DNA from: Bartonella schoenbuchensis R1
GTDB taxonomy: Bacteria > Pseudomonadota > Alphaproteobacteria > Rhizobiales > Rhizobiaceae
Assembly (NCBI RefSeq): GCF_002022685.1
Contig: NZ_CP019789.1
Span: forward strand, 1,178,001 to 1,242,000
Direction of reading: 5' to 3'
Length of the DNA: 64,000 nt
Shown here piece by piece: positions 815 through 63,839 of this stretch; within the stretch, counting starts at the first letter, position 1; each line of letters begins with the position of its first letter. Both the position numbers and the translations under genes were made by a program. Below the pieces are notes generated by a model. The model was not told where the DNA came from. It made no database searches and saw only the letters and a program-made list of their open reading frames with translations.

Positions 815-1672
815 ATGAACGACTTTCCTTTTTGTCCTGCTATTAATTTCCCTACCTTTCTTGATCCTGTTATTATCCATTTAGGTCCCATAGCGCTACA
901 CTGGTATGGGCTTGGTTATGTTGTAGGCATTCTTTTTTCTTGGTGGTATGCGCAAAAATTATTGGCAAAAAAATTCTTGTGGCACGCAAACCAACCTCCC
1001 ATGGATCAACATAAAATAGGTGATTTTGTTATTTGGGCTACTATAGGTATTGTTGTTGGTGGTCGTTTAGGACAAGTGCTTGTGTGGGATCCTGCTTATT
1101 ATTTTAACCATCCAAGCGCCATTATTGCAGTGTGGACTGGAGGAATGTCTTTTCATGGCGGCCTTATTGGTACCACCATTGCAATGATCTGGTTTGCTCG
1201 TAAAAATAGCATTAACATTTGGGCAATGTTTGATACAATTGCTGTAGGTGCCCCCGTTGGTATCGGCATTGTGCGGGTGTGCAACTTCATTAACCAAGAA
1301 TTATGGGGTAATGTTACTACCGTTCCTTGGGCTATTTGCTTTAACTATGATCCCCAATATCTACCACGCCATCCAAGTCAACTTTATGAAGCGTTGATGG
1401 AAGGATTTCTTCTTTTCATCATATTGGCTATTGCTGTTTTTGCTTTTAAAGTATTAAAACGCCCTGGAACAGCAACTGGAATATTTATTTTAGGTTATGG
1501 AATAGCGCGTAGCATTTCAGAAATTTTTCGTGTTCCTCAAGAAGACCCAGAGTGGTTTTCTGCCCTCTTTTATTCCACTGGATTTACCTATGGAATGGCA
1601 TTATCTCTTCCTATGATTCTCTTTGGCTTTTATGCACTTCTTCAAGCTTTTAGAAATCATTCTATAAAATAA
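815..1672 (+). CDS. lgt: prolipoprotein diacylglyceryl transferase Lgt
   Basis: Inner-membrane enzyme that moves diacylglycerol from phosphatidylglycerol to the lipobox cysteine of prolipoproteins, the first step of lipoprotein maturation. The 285-residue product has multiple hydrophobic segments and Lgt signature stretches: HWYGLGYVVGILF near residue 30, GRLGQVLVWDPAYYF, then GGMSFHGGLIG with the conserved His-Gly-Gly. The frame is open from a GTG at 758, but the ATG at 815 starts the family-conserved N terminus (MNDFPFCPAINFP), so I prefer it. The stop overlaps the ATG of midA (TAATG), indicating translational coupling. The L,D-transpeptidase at 6.6 kb is one likely lipoprotein client. Confidence 0.95.
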   Translation: MNDFPFCPAINFPTFLDPVIIHLGPIALHWYGLGYVVGILFSWWYAQKLLAKKFLWHANQPPMDQHKIGDFVIWATIGIVVGGRLGQVLVWDPAYYFNHPSAIIAVWTGGMSFHGGLIGTTIAMIWFARKNSINIWAMFDTIAVGAPVGIGIVRVCNFINQELWGNVTTVPWAICFNYDPQYLPRHPSQLYEALMEGFLLFIILAIAVFAFKVLKRPGTATGIFILGYGIARSISEIFRVPQEDPEWFSALFYSTGFTYGMALSLPMILFGFYALLQAFRNHSIK

Positions 1673-2759
1673 TGACTACTCTAAAAGAAAAATTAAAGAA
1701 ATTATTGCTGCCAATGGGCCAATAACTGTTAGTCAATATATGACATTAGCCCTCACAGACCCACAATTTGGCTATTACCAAACACAAGAGCCTTTTGGAT
1801 CTACGGGTGATTTCATTACCGCACCTGAAATAAGTCAATTATTTGGAGAGATGATTGGTATTTGGGTTTTTGCAAGCTGGAAAGCTCAAGGTAGCCCCAA
1901 TCCTTTCATTTTAGCTGAAATAGGTCCAGGACGTGGAACACTCATGGACGATGTTTTACGTACCATTCAAAAATTATGTAAAACAGCCTTCAATGCTGCT
2001 GAAATTTTTCTTGTTGAAATAAGCCAACGTCTTGCAACAGAACAAAAAAAACGTCTTTCCTCTTATCAAAAACATATTCATACTATTGAACATTTTAATC
2101 AAATACCTTCAGGACCTCTCTTTCTCATTGCTAATGAGCTCTTTGATGCGCTTCCTATCCACCAATATATCAAAATCAACGGAGAATGGAGAGAGCGTTG
2201 CATTACACTTGATCAAGATGGTCATTTTACCTTTATAGCTGGAGCGCATAAATTTTCTTCTGGTGACTTACCAGTCTATTGTGCTCAAATGCCTGACGGA
2301 ACAATTTGGGAATACGCTCCCTTACGTAACCAACTGATGCAACAAATTAGTAATCGCTTAATACAAGATAAAGGATCTGCTTTGCTCATTGATTATGGTG
2401 CTTCTGATTGTGCATTTGGGGATACATTGCAAGCTATTTCAAAACATAAATTCCGCGATGTTTTTGCCAACCCAGGTGAAAATGATTTAACATCACATGT
2501 TGATTTTTTTACTTTAAAAACAATAGCACTTCAAGAAGGCTGTTTTGCTGAAATTCTAGAACAAGGAGATTTTCTTGTAAAAATGGGAATTCTTGAACGT
2601 GCAAAACAGCTTAGCATTAATAAAGATACCTTGATCCAAAACAAAATCCGTCAAGATATTGAACGGCTTGTCAGCCCAGATCAAATGGGTAAACTTTTCA
2701 AAGTTCTCCATGTTAGTGATCAATCTACTACTATCTCTAACTTTTTTGACTTCCAATAA
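1672..2759 (+). CDS. midA: MidA/NDUFAF7-family SAM-dependent methyltransferase, N terminus frameshifted
   Basis: Class I SAM-dependent methyltransferase of the MidA/NDUFAF7 family; mitochondrial homologues methylate an arginine of the complex I subunit NDUFS2. The uninterrupted frame runs 1740-2759 (339 residues) and contains the glycine-rich SAM motif EIGPGRGTLMDDV and the family sequence LIANELFDALPIHQY. The natural start is the ATG at 1672 overlapping the lgt stop; it reads MTTLKEK and then goes out of frame at an A5 run (1688-1692). One more A gives MTTLKEKIKEIIAANGPI joined to the long frame, as in family members. Translation from the internal ATG at 1740 would lose about 23 residues. 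Followed closely by pgeF. Confidence 0.82.
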
Positions 2760-2828
2760 TGACAAAGAATTGACAAATACTGCTGTCTTGAACACCATTG
2801 CTTGTTCAAACAATTATGTGGAGCTTTC

Positions 2829-61753: not shown

Positions 61754-61780
61754 TATTATTTTCCTTAATTTTGGATACAC

Positions 61781-62928
61781 CTTACTTGTGGCGTGAAAAA
61801 CGCGTGTATTGAAAAGGGTCGTGCTTTAATTGATATCTTTTTAATATGTGCACTGTCTTTGAATTTACTCCCTCAAGCATACTAATCCTTTGGCTGTGAT
61901 TTTTGCGCTAGAAACGGTCTTTTCTATTCCACTGGATATTTAAGATGCGGATTACAATCCATTAATTTTTTTATTAATTTTACTTTAATTATGATAATAA
62001 AAACCCTCTTGGAATACAAGAATAAACCCAATAATAAATGTAAAAATAACTAATAAATCTTTAGGCTCTAATTCTAATATTTTTGCTACTTGGATTAAAC
62101 TAAACAGTCTATAAAATCGTTAAACATTTAAGTTGTTCTGCCTTTAAGTTAACTCAGCAATGATATGATCCTTGCGCTCACTCACGTTAGCAAATATTTG
62201 TTTTAGGCTAATGAAGAATTCTAAAAGTTTAGGAGTAATTTTACTTATAATATTATTGTAAGGTAGGAAGTTTTATCTACAACACAAAAAAACAAGAAAT
62301 ATTAAGGGTAGTAGAAGATATTACTTATGCCGTTCCGTGAACAAAACATTTAAAACTTCAAGCTTCTTCTCATCTCCAGATGAAGCACAAGTTATACGCT
62401 TTATATCTTTATATCTTTCCCGGAAATGGTTAATCCAGTTATTATGTTATGATACTTATATTTCTGAGTGCATTAAGAATAGCCATCAATTTATCCACAA
62501 AAGATCTTTTCCTCCTTTTGGCAGCTTGTATTTATACACGAAAGAAAACAGGACAATCTTTTCATATTACAGCTATTTATAACATTAAGCATTGCTGAGT
62601 CAGAAGCTGGAAGAAGAGTAAGAATAACAATCCAAATAAAATGACTTGATGTCTGCATCAACGTATTGGAGGAGTGCTACCTAAACTGAAAGAGTGTGTT
62701 ATTGTACTCCCTCTTAAAGAAATTAAAAACAAAGTGATATATTGTTAAAATCGTTTTGATTATTTATATAAAAAACCGAAAACAAGCACATATAAGCTTA
62801 TCTTGCATAAAAAGCTTCGAAATATATTGTAAAGCATTGTTTTTAAGACAAAGAAAAAATCAACATTTTGTAAATTTTTTGATGTAAAAATAACATTACG
62901 TATTTAAATATTACCTTTGGAGAAAAAT
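61781..62928. other. 1.1 kb stretch with no supported gene
   Basis: Only one frame above 60 codons (62337-62582), AT-biased, without a family and with a poor start; I do not support it as a gene. The region lies between phage remnants and a porin gene and is best explained as eroded phage or intergenic DNA. The last 100 bases precede the porin gene and should contain its promoter. Confidence 0.5.
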
Positions 62929-63839
62929 ATGAATACAAAATGTTTAATAGCTACATCTATTTTCACTTTAGCTGCAATTTCTTTAGTACAAGCAGCAGAT
63001 AGTATAGTTTTTAAAGAAAATTATAAAATGGGTGTTTCACCAATTGTTAGACCACCTACTTTTTCTTGGAATGGTTTTTATATTGGGGGACAAGTTGGTG
63101 GTTTCTCAAGTAAGATTTCCGCGATGAGTCATGATAATGATATTCCCTTACTTCCTGATAAGAGTGGTAGACCTAAAAAATGGGTTCCAGTTAATGAAAA
63201 ATTTTTGCCTAAACTTTCTGGTTTCATAGGTGGTTTTTATGCAGGTTCCAATGTTGATCTCAGTAATGGTCTTATCCTAAGCATTGATACGGATATAATT
63301 CTATCTGCACGAAAAAATACAAACACTATCGTAATTACCCCCCATCTACAGACGATAATATGCCAGAAGAAAGTAACTTAATACCGAATCATGAGAATAG
63401 CCAATATCGACTGTCTAGAAGAGATGTCCAATTAAGAGAAAATACAATTGATATAGAAGAGGCAGAAAAAACTATCATAACATTTAAGTATACTTTAAAC
63501 CAAAAATGGACAGGTGCCACACGGATACGTATCGGTTTTGCTGCTGATCGTATTATGCCTTATATCGCTGGTGGTGTTGCTTATGGACAGTTCCAAAATA
63601 TTCTATCGCTATCAAGCACAGCAACACATGACAAAGAGCTTAATAATATGTCGGATGAAACAAAAACAATGATCGGTTATACTTTTGGTGCGGGTATTGA
63701 TTTTGCAATGACCGATGATATTATTTTGCGTGCAGAGTATCGTTATTCGGATTTCGGAAAAAAGAAATTTGCTAAAGATAGCTTTGAACTTCATTACAAG
63801 ACTAATGATTTTCGTGCTGGAGTATCTTATAAATTCTAA
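62929..63839 (+). pseudogene. hemin-binding/Omp25-31-like outer-membrane porin, frameshifted
   Basis: A Bartonella Hbp-type outer-membrane β-barrel protein; family members bind hemin at the surface. Signal peptide 1-22 (ends VQA-ADS), then the hallmark FSWNGFYIGGQVGGFSS. The frame derails at a C6 run (63338-63343). One more C joins VITPPSTDDNMPEESN to the second frame, which has YIAGGVAYGQFQN, GYTFGAGIDFAMTDDIILRAEYRYSDFG and the terminal DFRAGVSYKF with its C-terminal Phe. The corrected protein is 303 residues. GGAGA precedes the ATG. Could also be a length-variable surface gene. Confidence 0.83.

What the first reader, a model, noticed from the sequence alone, without database searches (positions are those of the whole stretch)
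1672..63839. Ten genes broken by single-base changes in homopolymer runs across the whole window
Seen directly: midA, the DUF4159 gene, the following membrane-protein gene (two), DUF1134, both SBP genes, xseA (two), apbC, yraN and the hbp-like gene each lose frame at a mononucleotide run of 4-7 bases. Eleven need one base added and one (yraN) needs one removed. Frame arithmetic closes exactly in every case and yields family-length proteins; in the DUF4159 case it also restores an ATGA overlap with the next gene. The strong bias to deletion in runs and the hit on near-universal apbC point to homopolymer undercalling in the assembly. The biological alternative is slippage-tolerated or phase-variable expression on AT-rich runs, known from some insect endosymbionts.
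Basis: partly seen in the sequence, partly recalled or inferred. Interest (0 to 1): 0.8.

Follow-up and report, generated by a model that had tools for sequence, protein, structure and literature searches.

The report
Homopolymer errors in a Bartonella assembly
Ten neighbouring genes of a Bartonella genome look broken most likely because the assembly counts runs of the same base one short, a technical error repeated elsewhere in the genome, even in an essential ribosomal protein gene.

Summary
In detail: all 12 frame breaks in ten genes are in the sequence, and relatives carry these genes whole. One correction: yraN is two bases shorter than its relatives, not one longer, so all 12 have the direction of a loss. 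Undercalling of homopolymers is the best explanation. In 257,208 coding bases compared with G022 the assembly has 31 breaks, G022 none under the filter used (one G022 break was filtered out). Of 28 resolved losses, 25 lie at runs of 4 or more (21.9% by chance); G/C runs are hit 13 times more often than A/T runs. Broken genes include the only copy of rpsB, gltX, glyA, pyrB and mutS, and show the same purifying selection as intact ones. No clear mutator signature. Against it: intergenic runs show no bias, and the rRNA-copy test is weak because G022's copies differ at runs too. Reads were not available. Verdict: assembly artefact, not biology.

The parts
1672..1692 (+). midA (Methyltransf_28): frame break in the first codons, just after the start that overlaps the previous gene's stop; intact copies exist
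   Evidence: Pfam
16346..16373 (+). DUF4159/BatA-domain gene: frame break about 82 residues before the end; intact in five relatives and in a protein 98% identical
17029..17032 (+). membrane-protein gene downstream of the DUF4159 gene: first frame break, C run
18111..18117 (+). same membrane-protein gene: second frame break, G run
28254..28259 (+).
37423..37428 (-). first SBP_bac_5 gene: frame break within the first residues (13 N-terminal residues of the G022 protein out of frame)
38774..38831 (-). second SBP_bac_5 gene: frame break; five relatives' proteins lie in two frames here; full-length copies in G013, G010, G016, G004 (G022 has a break of its own elsewhere in the gene)
41750..41758 (-). 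xseA: second frame break (near residue 230)
42289..42293 (-). xseA: first frame break (near residue 51)
48503..48510 (+). apbC/mrp: frame break inside the KGGVGKS (P-loop) codons; intact in five relatives and in a protein 92-99% identical by piece
50934..50965 (+). yraN (UPF0102): frame break in the first codons; two bases shorter than three relatives

Best explanation
The ten genes are whole in the organism. The consensus sequence of this assembly reports homopolymer runs one base short at a rate that rises with run length and is about 13 times higher for G/C than for A/T runs. Each such undercall inside a gene shifts the frame and makes one gene look like two. Shown here: the breaks, their direction, their link to runs, their presence in two further 200-kb stretches and in core genes, and the lack of relaxed selection. 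Inferred: that the cause is consensus calling, probably of long reads without short-read correction; no reads or record metadata were seen.
For: 31 breaks in 24 of 271 genes, in 257,208 coding bases, against 0 in 230,823 in G022 under the filter. 28 of 31 have the one-base-short frame direction; the other 3 lie in two small ORFs with dN/dS near 0.6. Alignment resolved 27 of 31 as single-base losses, 2 as single-base gains, 1 as a ten-base gain, 1 unresolved. 25 of 28 losses lie within 3 bases of a run of 4 or more, chance 21.9%, p 5e-14. G/C runs of 4 or more: 16 of 726 hit; A/T: 9 of 5,411. rpsB is found once in the whole genome, in two frames; gltX, glyA, pyrB, clpA, hflX and mutS are broken too. 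dN/dS of 24 broken genes 0.127, of 247 intact genes 0.127; medians 0.116 and 0.115, p 0.85. The two rRNA copies are identical over 1,535 visible bases except one base in a G run in 23S (see evidence against). Whole near relatives exist of ApbC (99% over residues 126-364, 92% over 1-127), the DUF4159 protein (98%) and XseA (93-98% by piece). Long-read assemblies are reported to gain frameshifted pseudogenes through homopolymer indels (PMC12007338, passages seen).
Against: Non-coding runs aligned to G022 show no bias to shortening: A/T 23 shorter and 26 longer, G/C 3 and 3; at about 9% divergence natural change may hide it, but the test gave no support. The rRNA test rests on one event, much of the rRNA is masked, and the control is not clean: G022's own two copies differ by 11 mismatches and 8 gaps over 4,843 aligned columns, most gaps in runs. 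Three of 28 losses are not beside a run of 4 or more. One outgroup gives a slightly faster own branch (436 to 377, p 0.04). The near-identical whole proteins are not shown to come from the same strain or species. No reads were seen.
Confidence: 0.95

Rival explanations
1. True pseudogenes: the runs really lost a base and the genes are dead, as in a host-restricted lineage under reduction.
For: The assembly as given reads this way; eight breaks cluster in six genes of a flagellar neighbourhood. Three breaks lie in two small ORFs with dN/dS near 0.6 that may truly be decaying.
Against: rpsB, found once, cannot be dead in a living cell (essentiality is general knowledge). Purifying selection is unchanged. 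Stops inside the aligned pieces are few: 6 in 24 broken genes, 5 of them in two genes, against 14 in 247 intact genes.
Confidence: 0.015
2. Frameshifts tolerated by transcriptional slippage on homopolymers, as in Buchnera and Blochmannia.
For: Core genes are hit and remain under selection, as in Blochmannia (PMC3017870, passages seen).
Against: 16 of the 25 run-associated sites are G/C runs, while all transcript insertions at runs measured in E. coli and Buchnera were in A/T runs (PMC5574713, passages seen). No run at the 28 resolved sites exceeds 7 bases; the Blochmannia paper points to polyA tracts of 9 or more. Seven of 12 window sites are whole in all five relatives.
Confidence: 0.01
3. 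A mismatch-repair-deficient (mutator) lineage in which real slippage mutations pile up; mutS itself is in four pieces.
For: mutS is split by three breaks here and whole in G022 and G013, while mutL is intact. With outgroup G013 the own branch is slightly faster (436 to 377, p 0.04).
Against: mutS pieces are 91-97% identical to G022. With outgroup G004 there is no difference (533 to 514, p 0.58); transition share is similar on both branches. Losses far outnumber gains (27 to 3), and rpsB is hit.
Confidence: 0.015
4. Phase-variable (contingency) loci switched off in the sequenced clone.
For: Mononucleotide contingency loci exist in Bartonella (PMC11466379, passages seen).
Against: The frameshifting runs described there are nine-base repeats in an adhesin gene; here they are 4-7 bases and lie largely in housekeeping genes.
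Confidence: 0.005

Closest known systems
Gene-fragmenting homopolymer indel errors of long-read bacterial assemblies (Kastor paper, PMC12007338, passages seen)
   Same: Deletions after runs of one base, frameshift-only pseudogenes, sequence otherwise intact
   Different: Sequencing technology of this record unknown; 24 of 271 compared genes are broken here, against 23.3% pseudogenes in that paper's worst draft
Slippage-corrected frameshifts of Blochmannia and Buchnera (PMC3017870, PMC5574713, passages seen)
   Same: Single indels in runs of otherwise conserved genes
   Different: There A/T tracts, long ones of 9 or more bases being common, some frameshifts shared between species; here mostly G/C runs of 4-7 bases, whole in relatives
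Mononucleotide contingency loci of Bartonella (PMC11466379, passages seen)
   Same: Frameshift by one base in a mononucleotide run, same genus
   Different: There nine-base repeats in an adhesin gene; here short runs, largely in core genes

Membership tests
Homopolymer undercall artefact | Breaks are losses at runs | tested here: met
   25 of 28 at runs of 4 or more, chance 21.9%; 27 of 31 single-base losses
Homopolymer undercall artefact | Strikes genes regardless of function, single-copy essential ones included | tested here: met
   rpsB, found once, in two frames; gltX, glyA, pyrB
Homopolymer undercall artefact | No relaxed selection in broken genes | tested here: met
   dN/dS 0.127 and 0.127
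Homopolymer undercall artefact | Untranslated sequence is hit as well | tested here: inconclusive
   One event between rRNA copies, but G022's copies differ at runs too; no bias in intergenic runs
Homopolymer undercall artefact | Independent accurate reads disagree with the consensus | not testable with these tools
   No reads available
Slippage-corrected endosymbiont genes | Long A/T tracts at the break | tested here: not met
   16 of 25 run-associated sites are G/C, no run over 7 at the 28 resolved sites
Slippage-corrected endosymbiont genes | Mixed run lengths in mRNA | not testable with these tools
   No transcript data
True pseudogenes | Relaxed selection and further lesions | tested here: not met
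   possible exceptions are the 127-aa and 150-aa ORFs and the 285-aa gene
Mutator lineage | Raised substitution rate on the own branch | tested here: not met
   436 to 377 (p 0.04) and 533 to 514 (p 0.58), no large acceleration
Phase-variable contingency loci | Long mononucleotide repeats (about nine bases) in the gene | tested here: not met
   Runs of 4-7 at the 12 sites; yardstick

The most novel reading that the evidence does not exclude
The run lengths are real: a Bartonella lineage with a broken mutS carries on the order of a hundred one-base frameshifts, even in rpsB, and lives by frame restoration on short G/C runs during transcription or translation, which would be a new kind of frameshift tolerance.
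Probability: 0.01. Interest if true: 0.9.

Novelty: not a real feature. Interest (0 to 1): 0.07.

Why it matters
As biology it does not matter; as data quality it does. Gene content, pseudogene counts and claims of gene loss (flagella, mismatch repair, iron uptake) taken from this assembly would probably be wrong. By rough extrapolation some 140 breaks are expected in the genome (assuming 75% coding), although its listed completeness is 99.98%, so a completeness score alone does not reveal such damage.

Tried and rejected
Intergenic run lengths against G022 as a test of undercalling: no bias, no support. First attempts to attribute each break to a run through the relative's run length: misleading, because substitutions in the relative can interrupt the run; replaced by runs in the assembly itself with a random-site null. 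From I keep only the counts of losses and gains. Reading the rRNA whole: 5,000 bases beside each copy read N in the own genome, so only the visible part was compared. The second contig (55,761 bases): in its first 20 kb, 9 plasmid records match, the 8 listed at 77-87% identity and all 9 Bartonella; not followed. Paper searches aimed at this genome listed no paper that describes it; one search listed 20 of 107. Six breaks found in G022 with own ORFs as queries were taken mostly as mirror images of own breaks, which I did not check one by one, and were removed by the filter.

Rows dropped before counts: G022 ORFs under 90 aa, with best identity under 70% or coverage under half (139 of 203 and 132 of 165 were kept); on the reverse side 126 of 149 and 122 of 135 own ORFs were kept. 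In one search, clusters supported by one genome only were not counted; several come from shifted ORFs of G016. The mutator test used 25 and 35 window genes only.

Full report
What and where. The window is G000:C1:1178001-1242000 of a 1,728,387-base genome in two contigs. It is a Bartonella: the ETF dehydrogenase of the window is 81-86% identical to its homologues in 12 named Bartonella loci and 71% in two others (80 loci kept of more). The nearest held relative is G022, 91% identical over the best stretch and collinear over the window; it appears to be B. bovis, inferred only from a contig length shared with P0002. The closest whole proteins found for three of the broken genes are 92-99% identical to the window by piece; one is labelled B. 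schoenbuchensis, one Bartonella, one, oddly, Helicobacter pylori. Whether they come from the same species is not shown.

The observation. Proteins of five relatives were aligned to the window piece by piece, with no frame restored. Seven breaks are seen with all five relatives; the one near 38.8 kb is seen in the alignments of all five although the automatic filter passed only G022; the one near 63.34 kb is seen only with G022. Three breaks lie in the first codons and were confirmed from alignments of the gene starts. All twelve are there. The yraN case is a shortfall of two bases against three relatives, so the one exception to the bias towards loss disappears. 52 genes of G022 were compared inside the window. 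Runs at the twelve sites: seven of G/C, five of A/T, 4-7 bases long, although only 168 of 1,774 runs of 4 or more in the window are G/C.

Beyond the window. The same comparison was made for the window plus 1242001-1442000 and for 600001-800000. This assembly has 31 breaks in 24 of 271 compared genes, in 257,208 coding bases; G022 has none in 230,823 when own ORFs on own breaks are left out. That filter also hides one G022 break in the second SBP gene, supported by five genomes. In one search, counting clusters supported by at least two other genomes, the 64-kb window has 7 and the 80-kb stretches of the relatives have: G022 1, G013 1, G010 0, G016 6, G004 1. G016 is thus also rich in breaks; four of its six are in the one-short direction near runs of 6-7 bases, two are in the other direction. 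I did not settle what they are.

Nature of the breaks. 28 of 31 have the frame direction of a one-base loss; the other three lie in two small ORFs of 127 and 150 aa with dN/dS near 0.6. Nucleotide alignment resolves 27 as single-base losses, two as single-base gains, one as a ten-base gain and one not at all. Of 28 with a loss, 25 have a run of 4 or more in the assembly within 3 bases; 21.9% of random coding sites do (p 5e-14). G/C runs of 4 or more are hit 16 times in 726, A/T runs 9 times in 5,411 (odds ratio 13.5).

Why not biology. By their best NCBIfam matches the G022 counterparts of broken genes include ribosomal protein S2, glutamyl-tRNA ligase, serine hydroxymethyltransferase, aspartate carbamoyltransferase, ClpA and HflX, and a decarboxylase near LysA (below its cut-off), an iron-type ABC ATPase, FlgH, FliI, FlhB and FliR. 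A whole-genome search finds rpsB once, in two overlapping pieces of different frame. A cell cannot live without S2 (general knowledge). Broken genes are as constrained as intact ones. Transcript insertions at runs, which such genes would need, were all in A/T runs in E. coli and Buchnera (PMC5574713, passages), and the Blochmannia cases are in A/T tracts (PMC3017870, passages). The frameshifting Bartonella contingency repeats are nine-base runs (PMC11466379, passages).

The rRNA test. As far as unmasked, the two rRNA copies are identical over 1,535 bases but for one base in a G run of the 23S gene, where translation cannot matter. The control weakens this: the two copies of G022, in a scaffolded draft with N gaps, differ by 11 mismatches and 8 gaps over 4,843 columns, most gaps in runs. 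I count the rRNA result as weak support only.

The mutator idea. Because mutS is in four pieces here, a mismatch-repair-deficient lineage was considered. mutL is intact; mutS pieces are 91-97% identical to G022. Synonymous third-position changes show no large acceleration on this branch: 436 against 377 with G013 as outgroup (25 genes, p 0.04) and 533 against 514 with G004 (35 genes, p 0.58), with similar shares of transitions. mutS is best read as three more undercalls.

Results against the reading. Intergenic runs show no bias to shortening (A/T 23 shorter, 26 longer; G/C 3 and 3). Coding runs with exact flanks show 11 shorter and 2 longer; of the 11, one is the 23S run and one differs by three bases. 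rpoB (its PF00562 match lies in an open frame of 1,393 aa) and mutL are intact, which is not surprising at about one break in 8 to 9 kb. No reads were seen, so the last step is inference.

Conclusion. This is most likely homopolymer undercalling in a consensus, probably of long reads (PMC12007338, passages, describes the same pattern).

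Noticed in passing
G000:C1:117056-119698 (L211): mutS lies in four pieces of different frame, while G022 and G013 have it whole; anyone reading this assembly could wrongly infer a mutator.
   Followed up: yes
G000:C1:1386734-1404889: Eight breaks in six genes of a flagellar neighbourhood (FlgH, FliI, FlhB, FliR by NCBIfam; a 165-aa gene that I take for FliL from its sequence and place, no family match; a 141-aa gene without a match) would suggest loss of motility if taken at face value.
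   Followed up: partly
L124-L127 (G016): Another single-contig Bartonella genome shows six frame breaks supported by at least two relatives in 80 kb, four in the one-short direction near runs of 6-7 bases.
   Followed up: partly
L114 (G022), near 44828-44859 of the joined 80 kb: G022 has a frame break of its own in the second SBP gene, at a different place from the window's.
   Followed up: no
L172 and L181 (G022 rRNA regions): The two rRNA copies of G022 differ by 11 mismatches and 8 gaps over 4,843 columns, most gaps in runs.
   Followed up: no
P0241: An exodeoxyribonuclease VII subunit 93-98% identical by piece to the window's XseA is labelled Helicobacter pylori in a public source; the label looks wrong.
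   Followed up: no
L182 (G000:C2, 55,761 bases): The first 20 kb of the second contig match Bartonella plasmid records (listed ones 77-87% identical), among them conjugation genes.
   Followed up: no
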